Below are positions 20,457-39,033 of a stretch of 64,000 bases of DNA, piece by piece. Where the stretch lies: contig NZ_CADFEN010000001.1 in NCBI RefSeq assembly GCF_902833145.1, forward strand, positions 745,994-809,993, written 5' to 3'. Each line of letters opens with the position of its first letter. Position 1 is the stretch's first letter. Under the pieces are notes generated by a model, which was not told the DNA's origin, searched no databases, and saw only the letters and a list, made by a program, of their open reading frames with translations. The translations under genes were made by a program, and so were the position numbers. Source of the DNA: Burkholderia sp. BCC0506 (lineage in GTDB: Bacteria; Pseudomonadota; Gammaproteobacteria; Burkholderiales; Burkholderiaceae).

Positions 20457-21058
20457 TCGCGGTTCACCACGGTTGCGCGATGTCCGGCGCGTACCGTGCA
20501 ACCGCTCCCGGCCTTCGCCAGCCTCCCGGCAAGCATCGGCCGCGCTGCGTGCGTGGCCGGGCGTACCCGCGTCGCGCCCGCGCCGCGCGTCGTATCCCGT
20601 CTTGCCCGCCGTTTTCCGGCTGCCGGCGCCCTGCGCGCCCATGTCGCACCGCGCGCCGTTCGCGCGCGGCCTCTCCCCGCCCCCGTCCACCGCGAGCCGT
20701 ACGCGCCGCCCACGCCCGCGCCGCCGCGCGCTGGCCCGTCTGTACTCCTTGCCGGCCGAAGGCGCGCGCATGTGAGGGTGCAATTCACGGCCGGCCCGGC
20801 ATGGAACTGTGTCTTGGATGGCCCGTGCCGATTCGCTATTTTGAACGCAGTCGAAGCGATGCCGTGGGCGCCTCGCAGCACGCGCGCTTCCCGCCCCGAC
20901 CGCGACCGTACGCGCCGCCGGCGCGCGCTGCGCGAGCGGCCGGATGCGGCACGCGCGCCGCCGCGGTGCGCGCCGTGCGTGCGGTCGGGACGCGCGAGCG
21001 CCGCACCGCATCGGGACTTCACCTTCGACCCGCCTTCACCGACAGGAGCCAGACCACC
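20457..21058. other. Intergenic region upstream of the Clp ATPase
   Basis: A 602 bp stretch between two same-strand genes. It is open in several frames only because it is GC-rich; the encoded Arg/Pro/Ala strings match no protein type and have no ribosome-binding site. The one notable element is the promoter-like pair at 20814-20842. Nothing else is supported. Confidence 0.5.
20814..20842 (+). promoter_or_regulatory. Candidate promoter for the Clp ATPase
   Basis: TTGGAT (20814-20819) and TATTTT (20837-20842) are separated by exactly 17 bp in an otherwise very GC-rich region, about 217 bp before the clp start. The fit to a sigma-70 promoter is moderate. The upstream base gives CTTGGAT, which also loosely resembles a heat-shock minus-35, but there is no CCCCAT box. 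Confidence 0.35.
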
Positions 21059-23899
<2,841 letters not shown>

Positions 23900-23908
23900 A
23901 AAAACGCA

Positions 23909-23959
23909 TGCCCTGCAACCCGGGGCACGCATGACCGGCTCCGTCCGCCGGACGGAGCC
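23909..23959. terminator. Paired hairpins after the Clp gene
   Basis: Ten bases after the clp stop there is an imperfect stem (GC-TGCCC/GGGCA-GC, 23907-23932) preceded by a run of seven A. It is followed by a perfect 10-bp stem with a 3-nt loop (GGCTCCGTCC/GGACGGAGCC, 23937-23959). On the plus strand no T-run follows, so the A-run side would serve transcription from the right. It probably ends clp transcription, perhaps with Rho. Confidence 0.4.
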
Positions 23960-24023
23960 GCCCCACGCCGCGACACGGCGCAACCGAGCCACCCGCATCG
24001 GGCCCGGCTATTGGAGATTCACC

Positions 24024-26303
24024 ATGACAAATCGACGCGAAGTGCCAGGGATCAGGAAATACGATGGGCCCGCCGGCGGTTGGGGCGCGCTTCGCGCGAC
24101 AGCCGAGGCGGTACGTACGCAGATGGAAACCATCGAGGCGCCGATCGTGCTGATGCGGACCAACCAGCCCGACGGCTTCGACTGCCCCGGCTGCGCGTGG
24201 CCCGACAAGGAACACAAGTCGACGTTCCAGTTCTGCGAGAACGGCGCGAAGGCCGTCACGTGGGAAGCGACGACCAAGCGCGTGACGCCCGAGTTCCTCG
24301 CGGCAAACACCGTGTCGTCGCTGCTGCGCATGTCGGACTACGAACTGGAGAACATGGGCCGGCTCACGCATCCGCTCGTCTACGACCGCGCGACCGACAC
24401 GTTCCGCGCGATCGAGTGGGACGACGCGTTCGCGCGCATCGGCGAAGTGCTGCGCGCGCTGCCGCCCGAGCAGGTCGAGTTCTACACGTCGGGCCGCGCG
24501 TCGAACGAAGCCGCGTACCTGTACCAGTTGTTCGCGCGCGAGCTCGGCACCAACAACTTCCCCGACTGCTCGAACATGTGCCACGAGCCGACCAGCGTCG
24601 GCCTGCCGCAATCGATCGGCATCGGCAAGGGCACGGTGTCGCTGGAAGACTTCGACCACTGCGAGCTGATCATCTCGATCGGCCACAACCCCGGCACGAA
24701 CCATCCGCGGATGATGGGCACGCTGCACGAATGCTCGCGCCGCAACGTGCCGATCATCGTGTTCAACCCGCTGCGCGAGCGCGCGCTCGAACGCTTCGCC
24801 GATCCGCAGGACATGATCGAGATGGCGTCGTTCGGTTCCACGCGGATCGCGTCGACGTACTACCAGGTCGATGCGGGCGGCGACGCGGCCGCGCTGAAAG
24901 GCATCATGAAGGCATTGCTGAAGCTCGAGGCCGAACAAGGCGGCGTGCTCGATCGCGACTTCATCGCGCAGCACACTCAAGGCTTCGACGACTTCTCGGC
25001 CGACCTCGAAGCCACGTCGTGGGACGACATCGAGCGCGCGAGCGGCCTGAGCCAGGCGCAGCTCGAACAGGTCGCGCTCGCGTACGCGAAGTCGAACGCG
25101 ACGATCGTCACGTACGGAATGGGCGTCACGCAGCACAACAAGGGCACGGCCACCGTGCGCCTGATCGCCGACCTGCTGCTGATGCGCGGCAACTTCGGCA
25201 AGCCCGGCGCGGGCATCTGCCCGCTGCGCGGCCACTCGAACGTGCAGGGCAACCGCACGGTCGGCATCACCGAGAAGCCGTCGGCCGAGTTCCTGAAGAA
25301 GATCGAGGACGTGTGCGGCTTCACGCCGCCCGCGCGGCACGGACACGACGCGGTTCAGGCCATGCAGGCGATGATCGACGGCACCGCGAAGGCGCTGCTG
25401 TGCCTGGGCGGCAACTTCGCGGTCGCGCTGCCCGATCCCGAGGTGTCGTTCCCGGCGATGGCGAAGCTCGACCTGAGCGTGCATCTCGGCACGAAGCTGA
25501 ACCGTTCGCACCTGCTGGTCGGCAAGGAAACCTTCATCCTGCCGGTGCTCGGCCGCACCGAGCTCGACATGCAGGCCACCGGCCGGCAGTCGATCACCGT
25601 CGAGGATTCGATGTCGATGGTTCATGCGTCGGCCGGCAAGCTCAAGCCCGCGTCGGACCGGTTGCGCTCGGAGCCCGCGATCGTCGCCGGCATCGCGCAT
25701 GCGACGCTGCCGAACAGCAAGGTCGCGTGGCTCGACCTGATCGCCGACTACGACCGCATCCGCGACCTGATCGACAAGACGGTGCCCGGCTTCGAGGCGT
25801 TCAACGAGCGGATCCGCACGCCGGGCGGCTTCCGCCTGCCGCTGCCGCCCACCGAGCGCGTGTGGCCGACGCCGACCGGCAAGGCGATGTTCTCGGTCTA
25901 CAAGGGCGTGAAGGAGGACGCGGACGTGCTCGGCGCCGAGCACGTGCTGCGGCTGATCACGCTGCGCAGCCACGACCAGTACAACACGACGATCTACGGG
26001 CTCGACGACCGCTATCGCGGCGTGTTCGGCCGGCGCGACGTGCTGTTCATGAACGCGGCCGATCTCGAGAAGTACGGGCTCGAGCACGGCGACCTCGTCG
26101 ACATCGAGACGGTCACCGCGTCGGGCCGCACGCTGCGCCTCGAGAAGATCACCGCGATCGAGTACGACATCGCGCCGGGCTCGGTCGGCGCGTACTACCC
26201 GGAAGCGAACGTACTCGTGCCGCTCGACTACATCGACAAGGAAAGCGGCACGCCGTCGTACAAGTCGGTGCCGGTGCGCGTCGCGCGCTCGGCGGTGGTG
26301 TGA
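24024..26303 (+). CDS. FdhF/YdeP-family molybdopterin oxidoreductase
   Basis: A 759-residue molybdopterin-dependent enzyme of the YdeP group (formate dehydrogenase H-like alpha subunit). Near the N-terminus only C54-P-G-C57 and C71 remain of the usual four-Cys iron-sulphur site. The pterin-binding blocks follow: FYTSGRASNEAAYLYQLFAR, NMCHEPTSVGL (the Cys lies where FdhF has its Mo-ligating selenocysteine), ISIGHNPGTNHPRMM and LRGHSNVQGNRTVGI. The C-terminal part is the molydopterin dinucleotide-binding barrel (LRSHDQYNTTIYGLDDRYRGV). E. coli YdeP is linked to acid resistance; its substrate is not firmly known. The gene has GGAG before the ATG. The fdhD-moeA-moaAED genes at 44.6-49 kb could mature it. 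Confidence 0.88.
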   Translation: MTNRREVPGIRKYDGPAGGWGALRATAEAVRTQMETIEAPIVLMRTNQPDGFDCPGCAWPDKEHKSTFQFCENGAKAVTWEATTKRVTPEFLAANTVSSLLRMSDYELENMGRLTHPLVYDRATDTFRAIEWDDAFARIGEVLRALPPEQVEFYTSGRASNEAAYLYQLFARELGTNNFPDCSNMCHEPTSVGLPQSIGIGKGTVSLEDFDHCELIISIGHNPGTNHPRMMGTLHECSRRNVPIIVFNPLRERALERFADPQDMIEMASFGSTRIASTYYQVDAGGDAAALKGIMKALLKLEAEQGGVLDRDFIAQHTQGFDDFSADLEATSWDDIERASGLSQAQLEQVALAYAKSNATIVTYGMGVTQHNKGTATVRLIADLLLMRGNFGKPGAGICPLRGHSNVQGNRTVGITEKPSAEFLKKIEDVCGFTPPARHGHDAVQAMQAMIDGTAKALLCLGGNFAVALPDPEVSFPAMAKLDLSVHLGTKLNRSHLLVGKETFILPVLGRTELDMQATGRQSITVEDSMSMVHASAGKLKPASDRLRSEPAIVAGIAHATLPNSKVAWLDLIADYDRIRDLIDKTVPGFEAFNERIRTPGGFRLPLPPTERVWPTPTGKAMFSVYKGVKEDADVLGAEHVLRLITLRSHDQYNTTIYGLDDRYRGVFGRRDVLFMNAADLEKYGLEHGDLVDIETVTASGRTLRLEKITAIEYDIAPGSVGAYYPEANVLVPLDYIDKESGTPSYKSVPVRVARSAVV

Positions 26304-26792: not shown

Positions 26793-26904
26793 CGACGACT
26801 CACCGCGTGGAGTGTGACGCGGGTTGAAACCCAGACTCCGATGGTAAAGCGCTCCGGTAAATAAGCGCGAACTGCATCATCATACTTTTCCAGATCAACT
26901 TGAA

Positions 26905-26943
26905 TGCGGCCTCATCCGACAGGAGATGGCCGCACTCTTTTAT
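26905..26943 (+). terminator. Possible intrinsic terminator
   Basis: A perfect 7-bp GC-rich inverted repeat (TGCGGCC at 26905-26911, GGCCGCA at 26928-26934) with a 16-nt loop is followed by CTCTTTTAT. It lies about 110 bp past the small periplasmic protein gene. The loop is rather long, so support is moderate. Confidence 0.4.
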
Positions 26944-27033
26944 GATCTTGCACGGTGGCATGATTGCCTGAGCAACTGCATCGCTGCGACCTTCGACGAC
27001 GGGCATCCGACGGGAACCGCCGGCGTCGGCCGG

Positions 27034-27480
27034 CTACACGTTGGCCCAGGCGTCGGTGCCCTTCTGGTACTGCATCACGCCGCCATGGAGCCGCACCCGC
27101 AGGTTGCCGTCCGGCACCTGCACCCAGTCGGTGATGTCGAGACTCCGCATCAACGCGACGAAGAAATCCCGCACCTCTTGCGACGCGTTGGCCTGCCAGA
27201 CGTCGATGCGCCCGAGGCACGCACGCAGGTCGCCGCTTTGCTGCATGATCGTCTCGACCTGTCCGGCGACGTCCGCCGCCGTGTCGTACACGTTCGTGCC
27301 GTCGGAACCGACGATCGACAGATGGATGCCGCGCACCAACGTCGGCTGGCCGGGCGTCTGCTCGACGAGCGCGATGCAGCTCGTCATCACACCGAAATCG
27401 ATTTCCGCCGCATCTCCCCATTTGCGCTCGCCGACTCCGAGCGGCGCGGGACCTTGTACGTTCTCGATGATGTAGGGCAT
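27034..27480 (-). CDS. Hypothetical protein at the edge of the reb cluster
   Basis: A 148-residue soluble protein starting MPYIIENVQGPAPLGVGERK; GAGG precedes the ATG at 27480. It reads as mixed alpha/beta (LVRGIHLSIVGSDGTNVYDTA; QVETIMQQSGDLRACLGRIDVW; a Trp-rich end). I do not recognise a family. It is the most distal gene on the minus strand of the R-body region, with about 210 bp between it and the next gene upstream, so it may be part of the same regulon or an unrelated neighbour. Confidence 0.6.
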   Translation of the reverse strand: MPYIIENVQGPAPLGVGERKWGDAAEIDFGVMTSCIALVEQTPGQPTLVRGIHLSIVGSDGTNVYDTAADVAGQVETIMQQSGDLRACLGRIDVWQANASQEVRDFFVALMRSLDITDWVQVPDGNLRVRLHGGVMQYQKGTDAWANV

Positions 27481-27692
27481 GGTTTCCTCACATGACTGAA
27501 CAGGACTGCCGATAGCGGGCCGCAACGTGTTCAGCCAAGAACGTGCGTCGCTCCCGCCGCTCACTTTCCGCATCGGGCCCGACGGCCCGGCGGGTCGTGT
27601 CGATGGATACTGTGCCGCCGCATGCGCGGCAGGCGATCGCCCCGCGGTTCACGCGGCATGACGCGCGCGGCGTTCGTCATCCGCGCCGCGCC

Positions 27693-28304
27693 TTACGTGC
27701 CCTTCTTGTCCAGCAGCGCCTGATACTTCTGCAGGCTCTCGTCGATCCGGTCGAGCGCGACGCTCGCGGCCTCGCCTTCGATCGCCTCCGCGGCGCCCGC
27801 GACGACCGCCGCGGTCGCGACGAACAGGTCGGTCAACAGCAGGCCCACCGCATCCATCGCCATGCCTTTCACGTCCTCGTCGATGGTCTTCTGCGCGAGG
27901 TCCTTCATCAGCACGCTCTTGCCCGCGATCGCCAGCGACGTCGACGCCTCGAAGTAGTTGGCCGCCGCCTGCGCGACCATGCCGCCGGCCTGCGTGATCA
28001 TCATGTTCGGGCCGACGGAGATCTGCGTCGTCGCGTAGGACGCCGTCTCCGCGTTGATCGCCTGCACGGTCTGCAGCGCCGACGGGGCGGAGCCGGCCGC
28101 ACCCGCGATTTGGTCCGGCGCCTTCAGTGCATCGGTGAACCGGCGCAGCCGGTTGACCGGCCACGCACGCTTGCCGGCTGTCGCCGGTGCGTCCTGCGGC
28201 GCGCCCCCGGCCTGCGCCGTCGCTTCGGCTGCGGCGTCCGCGACATCGTCCGGTGCTTGCGTCGGGCCGTCTCCGCGTCCGCCCAAAAGACCTTTCATGT
28301 TCAT
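27693..28304 (-). CDS. Hypothetical Ala-rich helical protein of the reb cluster
   Basis: A 203-residue protein. The first 60 residues are Ala/Pro/Asp-rich; the rest is strongly helical and small-residue-rich (LQTVQAINAETASYATTQISVGPNMMITQAGGMVAQAAANYFEASTS... order), a composition similar to the R-body structural proteins. A hydrophobic stretch (LLLTDLFVATAAVVAGAAEAI) is near the C-terminus. It lies 30 bp downstream of a RebB-family gene and is probably cotranscribed. No clear ribosome-binding site precedes either ATG (28304 or 28298). It may be an accessory or atypical R-body subunit; this is inference from context and composition. Confidence 0.6.
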   Translation of the reverse strand: MNMKGLLGGRGDGPTQAPDDVADAAAEATAQAGGAPQDAPATAGKRAWPVNRLRRFTDALKAPDQIAGAAGSAPSALQTVQAINAETASYATTQISVGPNMMITQAGGMVAQAAANYFEASTSLAIAGKSVLMKDLAQKTIDEDVKGMAMDAVGLLLTDLFVATAAVVAGAAEAIEGEAASVALDRIDESLQKYQALLDKKGT

Positions 28305-28333
28305 GGTTCAGGTATCCCGATAGTCATCGCGTC

Positions 28334-28627
28334 CTAGTGCGTGGAGCCCGTCGTCGACCCACCCGCCGCAGGCAGCGACGCGCCGCCCGATGGCGGCTTC
28401 GGCGACGCTTCGACGGACAGGATCATGGCCACGGCCTTCGACACGACGGCGTTCGAAATCTGGTTCAGCGCCGCCTGCTGCTGCGTCATGTTCTGCGCCG
28501 AGATGCCGACGGCCTGGCTGAACATCTGGTAAAGCGTGCCCAGCGCCTGGGCCGGCGATCCCGCGACGACGTTCACGTTGGTCTGCGTCAGCGCGTCGGT
28601 AATCTGCTCATTGACTTTGTCTGCCAC
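28334..28627 (-). CDS. RebB-family R-body protein, divergent copy
   Basis: A 97-residue protein. Its N-terminal core VNEQITDALTQTNVNVVAGSPAQALGTLYQ matches, position by position, the conserved start of the three other RebB-like proteins in this cluster (T-D-A-x-T-Q-x-N-V-x-V-V). It then has an amphipathic Gln/Ala-rich helix and a Pro/Gly/Ser tail not found in the others. A GTG start at 28627 is chosen because AGGAGG lies 4 nt upstream and the longer frame has no such site. RebB proteins polymerise into R-bodies, coiled protein ribbons that unroll on a pH change. This copy lies downstream of the sigma factor gene, apart from the main trio. Confidence 0.8.
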   Translation of the reverse strand: MADKVNEQITDALTQTNVNVVAGSPAQALGTLYQMFSQAVGISAQNMTQQQAALNQISNAVVSKAVAMILSVEASPKPPSGGASLPAAGGSTTGSTH

Positions 28628-28741
28628 GAGGCCTCCTCGGATCTCGGCTTCGGCATGCGATTGAAGGAACGGGCGGGCCGGCAGGCCATCGACGCCGCGC
28701 ATGCCGTTAGGAACGCTGCATGCCGGCGTTCGTGAACGCGC

Positions 28742-29299
28742 TCATGCGAGTTCCTCGCGCAACTTCTTGCGCAGCAGCTCGACGCGCTTTCTGGCAAGCG
28801 GCTCGTTGATTCCGAGCGTCGCGGCGATGTGGAGATAGGGCCGGTCCTCCTCGAACTTCAGCGTGAACAGCATCTGCTGCTGCGGGGACAGCATGGACAA
28901 CGCCTGCTCGAGACGCTGCAGCTGCTGTCTCAGCAGCAGTTGCTGCTCGACCGACGGCGCGTGGCCGGCCAGCTCGACGGCGTGATCGTCGTCCCAGCCC
29001 GGGTCGAATTCGAGCATGCCGCTTTCGCGCAGGCGGCGGCGCGCGCCATCGAGGAACGCGTGATTCAGCGCCAGAAACAGAAAGCCCGTCAGGTTCCGTA
29101 CGCGCTCGGGCGAGCGCTGCAGGTAAATGTGGACCTTGAGCGCGGTATCGGAAAGCAGCTCGTCGGCGCGATGAATATCGCCCTTGCACAACAGGCGCGC
29201 GCGACGCCGCAATTTCCCCTGCATTTCCCGCCACGCGCGATCGAGCTGCTGCGCCGGAGATTCGGGCGGCGGGGCAGCGTGCTGGTTCGAGGTCGTCAT
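28742..29299 (-). CDS. RNA polymerase sigma factor, sigma-70/ECF-like, of the reb cluster
   Basis: A 185-residue protein with the layout of a short sigma factor. Region 2 (about 25-90) includes RRRARLLCKGDIHRADELLSDTALKVHIYL and NLTGFLFLALNHAFLDGARRR. Region 4 (about 120-180) includes LEQALSMLSPQQQMLFTLKFEEDRPYLHIAATLGINEPLARKRVELLRKKLRE, a helix-turn-helix. AAGGAAG precedes the ATG. No anti-sigma gene is seen next to it. Sigma-like regulators are known beside reb genes in other proteobacteria, so it probably controls R-body production. It is divergent from the Crp/Fnr gene across a 411-bp AT-richer spacer. Confidence 0.82.
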   Translation of the reverse strand: MTTSNQHAAPPPESPAQQLDRAWREMQGKLRRRARLLCKGDIHRADELLSDTALKVHIYLQRSPERVRNLTGFLFLALNHAFLDGARRRLRESGMLEFDPGWDDDHAVELAGHAPSVEQQLLLRQQLQRLEQALSMLSPQQQMLFTLKFEEDRPYLHIAATLGINEPLARKRVELLRKKLREELA

Positions 29300-29371
29300 C
29301 CCGTGTCTTCCTTTTTTATGGAAAACACAGAATCGATTCGATGCCGGGAATGGCGCTGTTACCCGTGTAAC

Positions 29372-29392
29372 ACCGATATAACGATAATCGGT
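29372..29392. promoter_or_regulatory. Inverted repeat, candidate operator
   Basis: ACCGAT and ATCGGT form a perfect 6-bp inverted repeat with a 9-bp AT-rich centre, about 75 bp upstream of the sigma factor start. Size and place fit a binding site for a dimeric regulator. The binder is not known. Confidence 0.35.
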
Positions 29393-29406
29393 TTCGGTAA
29401 ATATTC

Positions 29407-29420
29407 TTGATTATTATGAA
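29407..29420. promoter_or_regulatory. FNR/DNR-like binding site
   Basis: TTGAT-TATT-ATGAA differs from the FNR consensus TTGAT-N4-ATCAA at one base. It lies in the spacer between the sigma factor and a Crp/Fnr-family gene, where such a site would be expected. Short motifs occur by chance in AT-rich DNA, so this is tentative. Confidence 0.3.
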
Positions 29421-29710
29421 CGGAAATTTTAATTCGCCGGCATAGCCCGATCCGTCGTTTCAGGTGCGACGCCGGACCGGACTGAATAACGGCATTGCGA
29501 TGAAAAAGAACGACTACCGCCGCGATGCGTCCGTGCAGCGGCATGCCGCTTCCCGTGTCGGCCGGTCGAGCGCGGTGGCCGCCAACGTGCCGCCCCGTCC
29601 GCACCGTTTGCCGATTATTTCAATACTTTCATTATTCATTTTTCACGCAATGCCGAAGGCAGCGTTTTTCGCTAGGTGGCTGCATCGTCAAACAACCTCG
29701 CGCGGAAAAC

Positions 29711-30385
29711 ATGCCTGCCCTTGCTAACGCTCAAACGCTGCGCAATATACCGATACTCACCGGTCTTCCGGAAAGCCTGCTCGCCCACATCGAGCGGCAT
29801 GTCACGCCCTGGCCCGAACACGGCAATCGCCTGCTGTTCTTCAAGGGCGAGCCGGGGGATTTCGTCGCGTTCGTGCACCATGGCCGTGTCTACAAGACGC
29901 TGCACGAACCCGGCGGACGCGAAATCATTCTCGGCCATGCGATGCCGGGCGACTTCATCGGCGAAAACGCGCTGACTCGCGCGCATCGGCGCAGCTTCAC
30001 CGCCCAGTTGAGCGCCGACTGCCGCATTTCGCTGCTGTATCGCCAGCACTTCGCACCGCTGCAGGCCGACGCGGAATTCATGGGGCGCATCCACGAGCAG
30101 CTGTGCCGGCACATTCAGCAGTTGAGCGACTTCGTCGAGTCGGCATGCCTGTACCGGCTCGAAGCCCGGCTCGCGCGCCATCTGCTGAACCGCATGCAAG
30201 GGAATGATCTCGAGGTGCCGCTGCCGGAGAACCAGAGCATCCTCGCCGCGATGCTCAACGTCAGCCGGCCGCGGCTGAACGGCAGCCTGCGGAAGATGCA
30301 GCGCGACGGCCTGATCCGGCTACACGAACACGGTGTGACGATTCAGAAACCGGAGCAGCTCCGGACCATCGCCGACACCAATTGA
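29711..30385 (+). CDS. Crp/Fnr-family transcriptional regulator of the reb cluster
   Basis: A 224-residue regulator. The cyclic-nucleotide-binding-like beta barrel covers about 15-130 (FFKGEPGDFVAFVHHGRVYKTL, GREIILGHAMPGDFIGENAL). A long dimer helix follows, then a winged helix-turn-helix (about 170-215: ENQSILAAMLNVSRPRLNGSLRKMQRDGLI). It lacks the N-terminal cysteine cluster of oxygen-sensing FNR, so the signal is unknown; it could be cAMP, NO, haem or another ligand. It is divergent from the sigma gene and convergent with the rebB trio. Position suggests it controls R-body expression together with the sigma factor. The ATG at 29711 has a weak GGAAAA upstream. Confidence 0.85.
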   Translation: MPALANAQTLRNIPILTGLPESLLAHIERHVTPWPEHGNRLLFFKGEPGDFVAFVHHGRVYKTLHEPGGREIILGHAMPGDFIGENALTRAHRRSFTAQLSADCRISLLYRQHFAPLQADAEFMGRIHEQLCRHIQQLSDFVESACLYRLEARLARHLLNRMQGNDLEVPLPENQSILAAMLNVSRPRLNGSLRKMQRDGLIRLHEHGVTIQKPEQLRTIADTN

Positions 30386-30463
30386 CGCCCGGCAGGCGCG
30401 CGCGTCATGCGGCGCCGCCGTGCAGGCAGGTTGCGCGCCGGGTTGCGCGGCGCGCAATGAAGA

Positions 30464-30787
30464 TCAGCCGCGCCCGTGGCCGAGGGCGTTCATCAACTGC
30501 GCGACGGCGGCCAGTTGCGAGACGAAGCTGTCGTTCGACGAGCGCGCCGCGCTGGCCAGCCCCGCCGGCGAGCCCGCGTAGAGCTGCATGATGCCGACGG
30601 TCGTGGCGGCGAGGTTCGACGCCGCCTGGTTCGCCTGCATCTGCACTGCGTTGTGAAGCAGGATCGCGGAGGCATGGCTGTTCGACTGCATGAGCGTACC
30701 CAAGGCCACGGCGGGCGCTTCGCCCACTACCTTGACGTTGGCTTGCGTGACTGCATCGGTCATCGCGGGGGAAACCTGTTCCGGCAT
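30464..30787 (-). CDS. rebB: RebB-family R-body protein
   Basis: A 107-residue RebB-family protein. Its core VSPAMTDAVTQANVKVVGEAPAVALGTLMQ is followed by an alanine- and glutamine-rich helix (HNAVQMQANQAASNLAATTVGIMQLY) and a short helical end. AGGAG lies 8 nt upstream of the ATG. It is the last of three tandem rebB-type genes on the minus strand. RebB proteins in Caedibacter assemble into the R-body ribbon, a coil that springs open and bursts membranes. It has no signal peptide; the structure forms in the cytoplasm. Confidence 0.88.
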   Translation of the reverse strand: MPEQVSPAMTDAVTQANVKVVGEAPAVALGTLMQSNSHASAILLHNAVQMQANQAASNLAATTVGIMQLYAGSPAGLASAARSSNDSFVSQLAAVAQLMNALGHGRG

Positions 30788-30966
30788 GTCGTTGCTCCTG
30801 GTTTGCGCGCCGCTGCGGCGCGGTCATGGCGAAAGCATGAGGGGGCGGTCGGCGCCGTCGATACGCGGCAGGGTGTCCGGCGGCACGGGCGTCGACCCGG
30901 CGTCGGGCGCGCGGCGCCGGGCGACAGCCACCGCGATCGGGGCCGCCGCCCGGCGCCGACGCCGGG

Positions 30967-31329
30967 TTACGCGGTCAGCGCCTTGCCGAGCGCCAGCACG
31001 TCAGCCAGCACGGACAGCACGCCGTTCGAGCCGATTTCCGTCGCGGCGGCACCGGCGCTCGCCGGCCCGAGCGTGTACAGCTGCATCGTGCCGACGTTCG
31101 TCGAGGTCGGCAGCTGCACCGCGGACTGCGACTGCTGCTGCACGGCGTTCTCGAACAGCACGCTGAGCGAATGGCTCTGGGCCTGGTACAGCGAGCCCGT
31201 GGCCATCGCGGGCGCTTCGCCGACCACCTTGACGTTGGTCTGCGTGACCGCGTCGGTGATCGCGGCGTTGACCGCACAGGTCTTGCAGGGGTCCTTCGTG
31301 TCAAGCGGATCGTTGACGTCGTTTGCCAT
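30967..31329 (-). CDS. rebB: RebB-family R-body protein with Cys motif
   Basis: A 120-residue RebB-family protein. After a short head containing DPCKTCAVN, the core ITDAVTQTNVKVVGEAPAMATGSLYQAQ and the helix FENAVQQQSQSAVQ match the neighbouring copy at 31522 closely. The C-terminal part (STNVGTMQLYTLGPASAGAAATEIGSNG) is also shared. The C-x-x-C pair near the N-terminus is present in both copies and could crosslink or bind metal. AGGAGA precedes the start. The two genes are evidently tandem duplicates separated by 192 bp. Confidence 0.88.
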   Translation of the reverse strand: MANDVNDPLDTKDPCKTCAVNAAITDAVTQTNVKVVGEAPAMATGSLYQAQSHSLSVLFENAVQQQSQSAVQLPTSTNVGTMQLYTLGPASAGAAATEIGSNGVLSVLADVLALGKALTA

Positions 31330-31521
31330 CGTATTTCTCCTGGTTCGCGAACGGGCGCCGCATCGAATCGGCTCTGCCCGCTCTGTCGTTTGCTCCGGAA
31401 CACCGCGCGGCACCATGGGTCAGGCGCCGGCGGTCATGCTGCGATCCGCGGCACGGCGGCGGTATCGGCGGCGCGTGCCGCTTGCGCCGCCGCTCGACCA
31501 CGGTGCTGCGACGACGCCTTA

Positions 31522-31854
31522 CTACTTGGCCACGGCCTTCCCGATCGCGATCACGTCGGCCAGAATGGAAATGATCCCGTTCGCGCCGATTTCCGTGGCG
31601 GCCGCGCCCGCGCTTTCCGGCCCGATCGTGTAGAGCTGCATCGTCCCCACGTTCGTCGACGTTTGCGACTGGATCGCGGCCTGCGACTGCTGCTGCACCG
31701 CGTTCTCGAACAGGATGCTGAGCGAATGGCTCTGGGCCTGGTACAGCGAGCCCATCGCCATTGCCGGCGCTTCCGCGACCACCTTGACGTTGACCTGTGT
31801 GACCGCATCGGTAATTGCGGGATTGACCTGGCACACTTGACACGTATCAGCCAT
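31522..31854 (-). CDS. rebB: RebB-family R-body protein with Cys motif
   Basis: A 110-residue RebB-family protein, the first of the tandem trio. It starts MADTCQVCQVNPAITDAVTQ, then has VNVKVVAEAPAMAMGSLYQAQSHS and a Gln/Ser/Ala-rich helix. It is nearly identical in its middle and C-terminal parts to the 30967-31329 protein. AAGGAG precedes the ATG. Tandem rebB-like genes are a hallmark of reb loci, where different copies build and regulate the ribbon. The 91-bp gap to the upstream gene suggests one transcript starting before 32599. Confidence 0.9.
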   Translation of the reverse strand: MADTCQVCQVNPAITDAVTQVNVKVVAEAPAMAMGSLYQAQSHSLSILFENAVQQQSQAAIQSQTSTNVGTMQLYTIGPESAGAAATEIGANGIISILADVIAIGKAVAK

Positions 31855-31945
31855 TTGTTGCTCCTTGGTTCACGTAGTTGAGAGGTCCGCACATCGGGGC
31901 CGGCCGGTTTCGCGTTGTTTCGCGTTCCGCCGCATGACCCGCGTG

Positions 31946-32599
31946 CTACTCCATGGACGCTGGGCCGCGCGTATCGTGAACGGCGGCGATGGGTTCGGAC
32001 GCTACGGCTGCGCCGGCGCCGATGTTCCGCAACCGGTCCTCCATCGCGTCGAGCCTGACGGCAAGCCGTTCGGCGAGCCATTCGGCAAGCCGTTCCGCGA
32101 GCGCATCGCCGTATTGCCGGAAGCATGCTTCGATTTCCTGCCGGATCAGGCCCGTCAGCTGTTCCCCGATCATCGTCAGCGCTTCGCGGGTGCTGTCCTG
32201 GATTCCGGCTGCACCGGATGCCGGCGCGTCGCCCGCCGGCTCGTGCGCGTCGAGCACGCCCGCTACTTTCCGCTGTTCCGACGCCAGCATGCCGAGGGTC
32301 GTCTCGTTCTGCGTATCGATCGTCTGCAGGATGCCGCGCATCTTCTCGTACGCCTTTTGCTGGTTGAGCTGCAGAAAATGCTTGATCTGTTCGCGTGCCT
32401 CCTGCCGGGTCTTGAACTGCGGCAAGGGCGCGTTCGCGGCGCTCGCCGGTGCGGCCGGGCCGGCGGCGGCCGGCGGCGGGCTCCCGTGCCGGCCCGACAG
32501 CCGCTCCAGCAGCACCCGTTCTTCGCCGGGTTCGAGCGGCCGTCCGAGTCGTTTCTCCGCGAGCTGGCGCAGCAAGGGGTCGAGTGCGTCGTCGCTCAT
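31946..32599 (-). CDS. Coiled-coil hypothetical protein at the head of the rebB operon
   Basis: A 217-residue soluble protein that I do not recognise. It begins MSDDALDPLLRQLAEKRLGRPL, then has a Pro/Ala-rich linker and long amphipathic helices rich in Gln, Glu, Arg and Leu (FKTRQEAREQIKHFLQLNQQKAYEKM; TREALTMIGEQLTGLIRQEIEACFRQYGDALAERLAEWL order), probably a coiled coil. GGAGG precedes the ATG. It is the first gene of the minus-strand rebB unit. It may be a scaffold, chaperone or regulator of R-body assembly; this is inference from position only. Confidence 0.7.
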   Translation of the reverse strand: MSDDALDPLLRQLAEKRLGRPLEPGEERVLLERLSGRHGSPPPAAAGPAAPASAANAPLPQFKTRQEAREQIKHFLQLNQQKAYEKMRGILQTIDTQNETTLGMLASEQRKVAGVLDAHEPAGDAPASGAAGIQDSTREALTMIGEQLTGLIRQEIEACFRQYGDALAERLAEWLAERLAVRLDAMEDRLRNIGAGAAVASEPIAAVHDTRGPASME

Positions 32600-33093
32600 G
32601 GCGCGCACCTCCGCGTGGCTCGCCCGCGGCACGGGTACGTGCGGTTCGGGTCGGATTTCGGGTCGGTGGGACGCCGCGCCACGGCGCCGCGGCCGGCGTG
32701 CTGCAATGGATCTCGCATGGGGTTCTCCTGGAAAGGGATGTGCGGCGGCCTTGCCGGAAATTTCGGCAGGACCGCTGCAAGGACGAACCGTGCGAGGGGT
32801 ATGTGAAACCGGTCGGCACCGCGCGCGGGCGGCGCCCGTTCCCGACAATTCTTGACTGTGTCCGGACCGCCGAACTGTTAGGATGCCGGTCGCCTCTACG
32901 CGGGCAGCGGGCAGCGGGCACGCCCACTGAACCGTCCCCTTTTCCAAGGCCAAGCGGCTGGTAAACTTTGCGCTCATGCCCGGGCGACCGGGCACCGCAC
33001 GGCCCACCGCCCGTAAAACCCGTCATACCCCGGCCTCGCCCCGCGCGATCCGTTGCAGTAACCGTTGGAGTGGCGCGCCCCGCGCCTGCAAGC
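32600..33093. other. Divergent intergenic region, rebB operon and trpS side
   Basis: A 494-bp region between the minus-strand rebB unit and the plus-strand small membrane gene. Frames crossing it are Arg/Pro/Ala-rich with no ribosome-binding site. It should contain the rebB operon promoter, but no clear sigma-70 pair is seen on that strand, which would fit use of the dedicated sigma factor. Confidence 0.4.
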
Positions 33094-33342: not shown

Positions 33343-34472
<1,130 letters not shown>

Positions 34473-37991: not shown

Positions 37992-38298
37992 TCTTTCACC
38001 CCAAAATCAATCGAAACACTTCCCCGCCCGCGCATCACAATTAAATCCAATAACAGCGTGACACACAAACCAATAACATCTCTCTATTTTTCACTCAAAA
38101 GTATAGGTCAACACGAACTTCATTCCGATATCAATAAATAATCACCGATACACTTCCGGATCCCCGTCACACAGATAATCAGCCTCTCAACAGGAAGCCA
38201 AAGAACAAGCTGCGCGCATTATTTCCCAACAGCCCATGAAAAGGAGCTTGGAAAGCGAAATACATCGACACCCGGCGCAGTAGGTTCTGTTTCTACTC
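37992..38298. other. AT-rich stretch without a supported gene
   Basis: Short minus-strand frames only, such as a 28-codon frame starting MYFAFQAPFHG near 38245 and a 35-codon frame starting MVGSSRRRLRVETEP near 38325 that ends at about 38225. None has a strong ribosome-binding site. No repeat or structure stands out. Confidence 0.4.
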
Positions 38299-38454
38299 TC
38301 AAACGTCGTCGGCTACTGCCAACCATGTCGACCAAGCAGAATTCAAGCCATTTAGGTTTGGATATTTAAAATTGATACGCCCATCACCCAGAAAATATAA
38401 TTTCTTATGTTCATCCGGATTAAAGGAAAGAAAATAGAAATTCGCTTGATGCAT
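38299..38454 (-). CDS. Short orphan ORF, 51 residues
   Basis: The minus-strand frame from ATG 38454 encodes MHQANFYFLSFNPDEHKKLY and on to INFKYPNLNGLNSAWSTWLAVADDV. Its composition is that of a real folded protein (aromatic-rich, mixed charge), unlike chance frames here. It is too short to recognise. A second frame (38472-38576) lies just upstream, so both may be pieces of one broken gene. There is a weak GGGG stretch before the ATG. Confidence 0.4.
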   Translation of the reverse strand: MHQANFYFLSFNPDEHKKLYFLGDGRINFKYPNLNGLNSAWSTWLAVADDV

Positions 38455-38471
38455 GAACGACCCCGGTTTAA

Positions 38472-38576
38472 TTATTTTCCTACAATTTTTCCAATATCGA
38501 CATCAAATGACACTGCATACATCCGATGATACTCCATACCCATCCATTTGCAAACGGCAACATTACAATTCACCAT
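38472..38576 (-). CDS. Short orphan ORF, 34 residues, with a truncated paralogue at 39118
   Basis: The frame MVNCNVAVCKWMGMEYHRMY then AVSFDVDIGKIVGK ends 17 bp before the 51-codon frame. Its first residues (NCN-x-x-x-CK) recur in the repeat at 39118-39198, where MNCNSIICK is cut off by the trpS leader sequence. A repeated start in two places suggests a real gene that was partly duplicated. No family is recognised. Confidence 0.35.
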   Translation of the reverse strand: MVNCNVAVCKWMGMEYHRMYAVSFDVDIGKIVGK

Positions 38577-38626
38577 TACCCTTACGGGAGCCAGTCATAT
38601 TTCATAATATTTCTTTCTTTTTGAAA
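38546..38626. repeat. 81-bp degenerate direct repeat, copy 1
   Basis: It aligns without gaps to 39118-39198, with about 62 of 81 positions identical by eye, including an identical AATATTTCTT block. On the minus strand each copy has a 7-codon frame (MKYDWLP here) after an A/G-rich stretch, then the start of the NCN...CK frame. It lies inside the AT-rich insert. Confidence 0.7.
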
Positions 38627-38932
38627 TAAGTTATCGATTCTGCCTCTACTTTCGCGCACACGAAAATCCACCGCATCTCCCGACAAGTGCCGAGTTTTCA
38701 TAATTACAAATCGCGTTTCTTAAACAGATCTTCCGGTACGGCACGTCAAGATCACCAGCATTCGATAAAACCCGGGTGCCAATGTAAGACAAAGCCGCAA
38801 GAATTACCGTTGCACTGCTGCAATCCGCCCACGCCGATAAGTGCAGCGCTGCGGTCGGATGAGAATATCCGGGGCCTCAGCGATACAGTCATTCGGCATT
38901 TCGCCTCCGACGCGGTCCGCTGCGCACTACGC
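38606..38932. other. AT-rich to mixed stretch without a supported gene
   Basis: Between repeat copy 1 and the second trpS leader, no frame on either strand has a believable start. From about 38750 onward GC content rises toward the chromosomal level. A plus-strand frame runs through it into the leader peptide but has no ribosome-binding site. Confidence 0.4.
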
Positions 38933-38938
38933 TATACT
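38933..38938 (+). promoter_or_regulatory. Minus-10 element of the second trpS leader copy
   Basis: TATACT, 6 bp before the leader ATG, as in the intact copy at 33276. The preceding bases CGCACTACGC are also kept, so this promoter may still fire into the broken trpS copy. Confidence 0.45.
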
Positions 38939-38944
38939 GCCGCG

Positions 38945-38995
38945 ATGGAAACGAAACCCGCCTCGCCGATCGTGCATTGCTGGTGGCGCGCCTGA
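38945..38995 (+). CDS. Second copy of the Trp-Trp leader peptide
   Basis: Encodes METKPASPIVHCWWRA: 13 of 16 residues as in the trpS leader, with both Trp codons and the stop kept. Distances to the downstream hairpin segments are the same as in the first copy. It no longer precedes an intact trpS. The differences show that it is a diverged copy, not a recent tandem duplication. Confidence 0.75.
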   Translation: METKPASPIVHCWWRA

Positions 38996-39033
38996 CCCAG
39001 GCGGCCCGTTTTTTTTTGCATGTCCCAAACGTG

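What the first reader, a model, noticed from the sequence alone, without database searches (positions are those of the whole stretch)
26900..32600. R-body (reb) locus with four RebB-type proteins, a sigma factor and a Crp/Fnr regulator
Four proteins (28334, 30464, 30967, 31522) share the same core, T-D-A-x-T-Q-x-N-V-x-V-V followed by a small-residue helix, which is the RebB family of R-body subunits. They are grouped with a sigma factor, a Crp/Fnr protein and three unknown proteins. R-bodies are coiled ribbons that unroll and can burst membranes; they are best known from Caedibacter. A complete-looking set here suggests that this strain can make one, and the three unknown proteins may be new parts.
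Basis: partly seen in the sequence, partly recalled or inferred. Interest (0 to 1): 0.85.

Follow-up and report, generated by a model that had tools for sequence, protein, structure and literature searches.

The report
R-body genes with cysteine-tagged ribbon subunits
This stretch of a Burkholderia genome holds a complete-looking gene set for an R-body, a coiled protein ribbon that can unroll and burst membranes; the set is of a known kind, but two of its ribbon proteins carry an unusual pair of cysteines, and next to them lies a gene position that other species fill with quite different genes and that may hold the payload.

Summary
Four proteins match Pfam RebB far above its cut-off (E 1e-20 to 1e-23) and are the only four in the genome. 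With the sigma factor, the Crp/Fnr protein and two of the three 'unknown' proteins they make up the published 'Group 2' reb cluster, the kind with which P. aeruginosa PA14 makes R-bodies. So the locus is a new member of a known kind.

Two points go beyond the papers I found. (1) Two of the four subunits carry an N-terminal CxxC just before the Reb core. All 25 loci of this arrangement have it (24 in two subunits); 0 of 98 control frames and 0 of 24 annotated Rebs of five other species do. A 2026 survey says no Reb has a second cysteine. (2) The third unknown (148 aa) lies directly after the rapA-like gene, in a slot that other species fill with unrelated genes (lipase plus phospholipase D, patatin, lysozyme set, papain-like and others): 34 of 47 loci have an occupant. 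The 148-aa gene also occurs without RebB, so it is more likely a passenger or payload than an R-body part. The redox and payload roles are inference.

The parts
31946..32599 (-). HP2.2-like protein, 217 aa (called P9 in my calls); first gene of the operon with three Rebs
   Evidence: no family; conserved at the same place in 25 of 25 Burkholderia loci of this arrangement and in relatives
31522..31854 (-). Reb subunit, 110 aa, with Cys5-x-x-Cys8
   Evidence: PF11747 83.8 bits; CxxC conserved
30967..31329 (-). Reb subunit, 120 aa, with Cys15-x-x-Cys18
   Evidence: PF11747 79.7 bits; CxxC, often CxCxxC in orthologues
30464..30787 (-). Reb subunit, 107 aa, no cysteine
   Evidence: PF11747 73.0 bits
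29690..30385 (+). Crp/Fnr-type regulator, counterpart of RcgA/HP2.4; start uncertain (29525 to 29711)
   Evidence: PF00027 49.4 bits, PF13545 48.3 bits
29357..29372 (.). palindrome TGTTAC-N4-GTAACA, candidate site of the Crp/Fnr protein, 58 bases upstream of the sigma gene
   Evidence: exact match; conserved in the alignment of 19 loci. Binding not tested
28742..29299 (-). sigma-70 family (ECF-type) factor, counterpart of FecI2/HP2.3, 185 aa
   Evidence: TIGR02937 53.5 bits, PF08281 38.1 bits
28334..28627 (-). short Reb protein, 97 aa, in the place that PA14 gives to RebD
   Evidence: PF11747 73.7 bits; order in relatives
27693..28304 (-). RapA/HP2.1-like protein, 203 aa (P2)
   Evidence: no family over cut-off; 27 of 299 family genomes and 12 of 398 genomes of family f6 have it; Ruegeria pomeroyi reb-cluster homologue at E 1e-11
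27034..27480 (-). 148-aa protein of unknown family (P1) in the variable slot after the RapA-like gene; passenger or payload candidate
   Evidence: 21 of 65 genus genomes; invariant C35, H53, C88 in 21 sequences; no family

Best explanation
The locus is a complete Group 2 R-body (reb) cluster. The Crp/Fnr protein and the sigma factor switch on, probably in few cells, the Reb subunits, the RapA-like and the HP2.2-like protein; the subunits polymerise into a coiled ribbon that can unroll and rupture membranes when the cell is engulfed. In this Burkholderia variant two of the four subunits carry a CxxC pair in front of the Reb core, which most likely binds a metal or forms disulfides between neighbouring subunits and so stiffens the ribbon or makes it respond to redox state. 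The 148-aa protein in the slot after the RapA-like gene is co-inherited with the cluster but is not a ribbon part. Shown here: family membership, gene order, conservation, cysteine pattern. Taken from papers: regulation and R-body formation in PA14. Inferred: that this strain makes R-bodies, what the cysteines do, and what the 148-aa protein does.
For: Four RebB matches. Order HP2.2-Reb-Reb-Reb, Crp divergent, sigma-Reb-RapA-P1 kept with small exceptions in 25 loci; the same gene classes in other genera, in unnamed family f6 and in Ruegeria pomeroyi DSS-3. Purifying selection on all nine genes. In PA14, RcgA and FecI2 are both needed for rebP1 expression and RapA co-localises with the R-body (Wang 2021, sections read). 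Palindrome before the sigma gene. CxxC in 49 of 97 Reb frames of 25 loci, 0 of 98 control frames, 0 of 24 annotated Rebs of five named species, 2 of 4 in B. pyrrocinia LWK2.
Against: No R-body has been seen in this strain. G010 keeps P1 but lacks hits for sigma, first Reb and third Reb in its cluster, so clusters decay. Two further genomes of the same genus (G039, G043) have a differently arranged cluster without cysteines. The sigma-70 consensus scan found 0 promoters, which says little for an ECF-type factor. The exact-palindrome chance was not computed; with up to two mismatches 0.31 matches are expected in the window and 2 were found.
Confidence: 0.8

Rival explanations
1. The slot gene after rapA encodes the cargo that the R-body releases: Group 2 R-bodies are a shared membrane-bursting device with an interchangeable payload, and P1 is the payload in this clade.
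For: Slot directly after the RapA-like gene occupied in 34 of 47 loci by unrelated genes: P1 (20, two of them with an alpha/beta-hydrolase-like gene and a PLD gene in front), gene sets with Phage_lysozyme and either patatin, bestrophin-like or an unassigned 326-aa gene in front (3), YiiX-like (7), an unassigned 725-729 aa protein (3), a 463-aa protein in Ruegeria (1). MACPF occurs in 3 of 65 genus genomes and 2 of the 3 copies lie beside P1 or the reb cluster. The hydrolase-like gene occurs in 5 of 65 genomes, 4 of the 5 copies directly after rapA, two of these only fragments. PA14 has three unconserved ORFs whose tag numbers put them in the same place (Wang 2021). Raymann 2013 already asked whether R-bodies deliver species-specific toxins.
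Against: 11 of 47 loci have no intact occupant and seem kept; 2 could not be judged. Loci are related, so counts are not independent. Several occupants (bestrophin-like, lysozyme) fit lysis or transport as well as cargo. No contact between any slot product and a ribbon is known. P1 has no detectable toxin family.
Confidence: 0.3
2. P1 is only a neighbour: an unrelated mobile or island gene that sits beside reb because both were gained in one island.
For: B. stagnalis (G059, L044) has P1 with MACPF and two unassigned genes but no RebB, at the same site at which G049 has the reb cluster. P1 relatives at 52-53% occur in two cyanobacteria without reb genes in the fetched 16 kb; one of those genomes has four weak RebB matches on another contig, the other none.
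Against: 20 of 25 loci of this arrangement keep P1, 1 of the other 40 genus genomes has it (Fisher p 3.5e-11, not corrected for kinship), and it stays under purifying selection.
Confidence: 0.45
3. The cluster is a relic that no longer makes R-bodies.
For: Decayed copies exist (G010, L046); no expression data.
Against: All frames are open here and dN/dS is 0.10 to 0.39 for the nine genes.
Confidence: 0.07

Closest known systems
Group 2 reb synteny of Raymann et al. 2013 (PMC3583457)
   Same: Rebs with two partner proteins of about 205-220 aa, a sigma factor and a Crp-type regulator (text read); here 203 and 217 aa
   Different: P1 is not mentioned in the sections read; Crp gene inverted between sigma and Reb operons; cysteine pairs in two Rebs
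PA14 reb cluster of Wang et al. 2021 (PMC8322103): rcgA, fecI2, rebD, rapA, rebP1P2
   Same: same gene classes; order Crp-sigma-short Reb-RapA-slot-HP2.2-Reb-Reb seen in relatives
   Different: Burkholderia order is HP2.2-Reb-Reb-Reb upstream; three unconserved PA14 ORFs (27650, 27660, 27675) in place of P1. PA14 sequences were not fetched
Caedibacter taeniospiralis pKAP298 Rebs
   Same: RebB family; 33% identity over 93% of the window subunit
   Different: at most one cysteine each in three annotated Rebs, no CxxC
Ruegeria pomeroyi DSS-3 megaplasmid reb cluster (NC_006569)
   Same: Crp, sigma, Reb, RapA-like (E 1e-11), slot, 207-aa protein in the HP2.2 place, Reb, Reb
   Different: slot holds a 463-aa protein of no known family; no cysteines in its Rebs

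Membership tests
RebB family (PF11747) | score over Pfam gathering cut-off | tested here: met
   4 of 4, 73.0 to 83.8 bits against 24
Group 2 reb cluster | sigma factor and Crp-type regulator beside the Rebs | tested here: met
Group 2 reb cluster | two partner proteins of about 205-220 aa | tested here: met
   203 and 217 aa, conserved at fixed places
Group 2 reb cluster | sequence homology of the two partners with the published HP2.1/RapA and HP2.2 | tested here: inconclusive
   published sequences not fetched; the Ruegeria reb-cluster protein matches P2 at E 1e-11, its 207-aa protein matches an HP2.2-like relative only at E 0.03; hhalign of P2 with the Rebs 0.3%
R-body producer | SDS-insoluble coiled ribbon | not testable with these tools
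   needs microscopy
Reb diagnostic features of Dorr et al. 2026 | no second cysteine in any Reb | tested here: not met
   two of four subunits have CxxC; the paper's statement was read
Reb diagnostic features of Dorr et al. 2026 | QITD motif in domain 1 | tested here: not met
   one of four has QITD (28334-28627); the others read AITD, AITD and AMTD; the paper calls the motif characteristic, not absolute
CheD-type glutamine deamidase (for P1) | profile similarity | tested here: not met
   hhalign 0.5%; 12 of 12 P1 sequences score -1.1 bits or less, not above shuffles

The most novel reading that the evidence does not exclude
Group 2 R-bodies are a standard membrane-bursting ribbon with an exchangeable payload encoded directly after rapA; in this Burkholderia clade the ribbon is held or triggered through CxxC pairs (metal or disulfide) and the payload is the 148-aa Cys/His protein P1. 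The slot is where the long-sought R-body toxin should be looked for.
Probability: 0.25. Interest if true: 0.9.

Novelty: new variant of a known kind. Interest (0 to 1): 0.6.

Why it matters
What kills the target of an R-body is an old open question: in the Paramecium system the ribbon alone does not kill (Raymann 2013, section read). The Dorr 2026 survey left out neighbours without Reb homology as too noisy. A fixed position after rapA with changing, often hydrolytic, genes gives a short list of candidates that can be removed one at a time in tractable strains. The CxxC pairs make a direct, cheap test possible of whether ribbon mechanics can be set by redox state or metal, which also matters for use of R-bodies as switchable materials.

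Tried and rejected
P1 as a CheD-like deamidase: the Cys/His spacing suggested it, but profile comparison and hmmsearch with 300 shuffled controls give no support. The same hhalign set-up also failed for P2 against the Rebs, which the literature regards as distant relatives, so it is a weak test; the hmmsearch is the better one. P1 against solved structures: best hits are copper-ATPase metal-binding domains at E 0.013, not convincing. P1 in phages: no match; in viral contigs: none; in plasmids: two Burkholderia replicons. Weak Pfam hits for members of the P1 alignment (ComGF and others, best E 0.0058) were set aside: they are single or double and unrelated. Rfam: no match in the window; tRNA: none. 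A remnant of the hydrolase or PLD gene between P2 and P1 in the window: none found. A first cysteine count used a narrow pattern that missed most Group 1 Rebs and grouped two same-genus loci with other genera; one search replaces it. Of the 98 control frames at least four are short spurious frames and at least two are counted twice (one genome entered by two loci). RebB in 369 genomes of the class: 4 of 369, three besides the window's own, not followed.
Full report
WHAT IS THERE. The species of the window was not determined. The nine genes are, on the minus strand, HP2.2-like (31946-32599), Reb (31522-31854), Reb (30967-31329), Reb (30464-30787); then the Crp/Fnr gene on the plus strand (scanned as 29690-30385); then on the minus strand the sigma factor (28742-29299), a short Reb (28334-28627), the RapA-like gene (27693-28304) and P1 (27034-27480). 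All are under purifying selection against 13 orthologues; the median ratio is 0.10 for the two cysteine-bearing subunits and 0.39 for P1.

KNOWN KIND. Raymann 2013 (abstract and sections 11 and 13 read, plus passages) defines Group 2 by two partners of about 205-220 aa, a sigma factor and a Crp-type protein. Wang 2021 (abstract, sections 6, 8 and 9 and passages read) shows for PA14 that RcgA and FecI2 are needed for rebP1 expression and that RapA co-localises with R-bodies. Dorr 2026 (abstract, Results, first part of the Discussion and passages read) names Burkholderia as a genus rich in Group 1 and Group 2 clusters. Matsuoka 2017: abstract and outline only. The window fits Group 2. In NCBI annotation the same genes of B. 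pyrrocinia LWK2 are called RebB family R body protein, Crp/Fnr, sigma-70 family and, for the three others, hypothetical protein.

DISTRIBUTION. 33 of 65 same-genus genomes have RebB. 25 of them have a cluster of the window's arrangement (window plus L045 to L068); two more (G039, G043) have a differently arranged cluster with a RapA-like gene. The RapA-like protein is found in 27 of 299 genomes of the family and in 12 of 398 genomes of another, unnamed family f6 (I suspect Pseudomonadaceae, not shown). In those 12, ten have the order Crp-sigma-short Reb-RapA-slot and two lack Crp and sigma hits.

CYSTEINE PAIRS. Dorr 2026 states that cysteines are rare in Rebs and that no second cysteine occurs in the few cases with one. 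Here two of four subunits have CxxC directly before the conserved core, with conserved ribosome-binding sequences upstream of both starts. In one search, 25 of 25 loci have at least one such subunit and 24 of 25 have two; 49 of 97 Reb frames. Controls: 0 of 4 in G039/G043, 0 of 23 in seven loci of other genera of the family, 0 of 30 in f6, 0 of 41 in ten Group 1 loci of the genus (spurious and double counts told in Tried and rejected), and 0 of 24 annotated Rebs of Ruegeria, Eleftheria, Caedibacter, Azospirillum and Bealeia, five of which have a single cysteine. Six control frames of Group 1 and two of other genera hold one cysteine. B. pyrrocinia LWK2 has the pairs in 2 of 4. The papers found with 'R-bodies, cysteine, reb genes' (5, four listed) and 'R-body, disulfide, RebB' (1) were seen as listings, apart from the two I had read in part. 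Metal binding or inter-subunit disulfide is the simplest use of such a motif; that is inference.

THE SLOT. Directly after the RapA-like gene, 34 of 47 loci (25 Burkholderia, 9 more of the family, 12 of f6, Ruegeria) have a gene that is neither Reb nor HP2.2: P1 in 20 (in G028 and G049 preceded by an alpha/beta-hydrolase-like gene and a PLD gene, PLDc_2 32.1 bits, cut-off 27); in three other loci of the family a block with Phage_lysozyme (172.8 bits in the one copy scanned), a gene of holin-like look and an esterase-like gene below cut-off, headed by Patatin (70.4 bits), Bestrophin-like (158.7 bits in the one copy scanned) or an unassigned 326-aa protein; a YiiX-like protein in seven (two scanned, Peptidase_C92 below cut-off in both); a 725-729 aa protein without Pfam family in three (two scanned), called ADA in my scripts by look alone; and a 463-aa protein without family in Ruegeria. 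Eleven loci have no intact occupant (one of them only a hydrolase fragment); two could not be judged because the contig ends. In G039 and G043 the YiiX-like gene lies between sigma and the short Reb instead. Loci within a clade are not independent.

P1. It is in 21 of 65 genus genomes and in no other genus among 398 genomes of the family. The genome-contig scan gave 13 loci: 11 Burkholderia and two cyanobacteria at 52-53% identity. In 21 sequences T33, S34, C35, H53, C88 and others are invariant, and these stay invariant with the two cyanobacteria. In B. stagnalis (G059) P1 lies with two unassigned genes and a MACPF gene (67.0 bits) and the genome has no RebB match. G049 has the MACPF gene and one of the two unassigned genes just upstream of its reb cluster, followed by the same large regulator gene, so cluster and island share a site. 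This argues that P1 can be inherited apart from reb. CheD kinship was tested and not supported.

REGULATION. The 390 bases between sigma and Crp genes are conserved in 19 aligned loci and hold TGTTACCCGTGTAACA at 29357-29372, a plausible site for a Crp/Fnr protein. With the PA14 result this suggests Crp/Fnr to sigma to Reb, which was not tested here.

VERDICT. A sound, complete-looking R-body locus of a known kind, with a subunit variant that contradicts a published generalisation and with a slot that makes the old question of the R-body toxin testable. Odds: Group 2 cluster near certain; R-bodies made by this strain likely; slot as payload about 0.3; the combined bold reading 0.25. Searches for print on payload: 'R-body, MACPF, reb' 0 papers; 'R-bodies, phospholipase, reb' 2 papers seen as listings; the broader cargo search gave 983 papers at four of five terms, 12 listed.

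Noticed in passing
L044:2374-7311 (G059, B. stagnalis); L053:12800-15000 and L139 (G049): MACPF gene with an unassigned 286-312 aa gene at one shared site, beside P1 without RebB in one genome and beside a reb cluster in the other.
   Followed up: partly
L081, L082: P1 relatives at 52-53% identity in two cyanobacteria; the Anabaena azotica genome also has four weak RebB matches (23.6 to 26.4 bits) on another contig.
   Followed up: partly
L127, L128, L129: Phage-type lysozyme and a holin-like two-helix protein inside reb clusters of related genera: a possible lysis cassette for letting R-bodies out.
   Followed up: partly
L046 (G010): Reb cluster with no hits for the sigma factor and two Rebs, but P1 kept; a copy of the hydrolase-like gene lies on another contig.
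   Followed up: no
window 20480-23899: Plus-strand gene with Clp_N and AAA_2 domains (ClpV/ClpB type) not far from the reb cluster; may belong to a type VI secretion set (recalled, not tested).
   Followed up: no
window 23931-26303: Molybdopterin oxidoreductase gene on the plus strand.
   Followed up: no
window 33421-34472: A trpS-like gene (named by eye from its sequence, no family scan) lies beside the cluster; its homologue flanks the cluster in several relatives.
   Followed up: no
window 38001-39000: G+C falls to 0.459 and skew to -0.233 in a genome of about 0.68.
   Followed up: no
L153:14276-14441 and L153:1-1049: In B. pyrrocinia LWK2 a family 1 encapsulin shell gene and a ferritin-like gene lie within 7 kb on either side of the reb cluster.
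   Followed up: no
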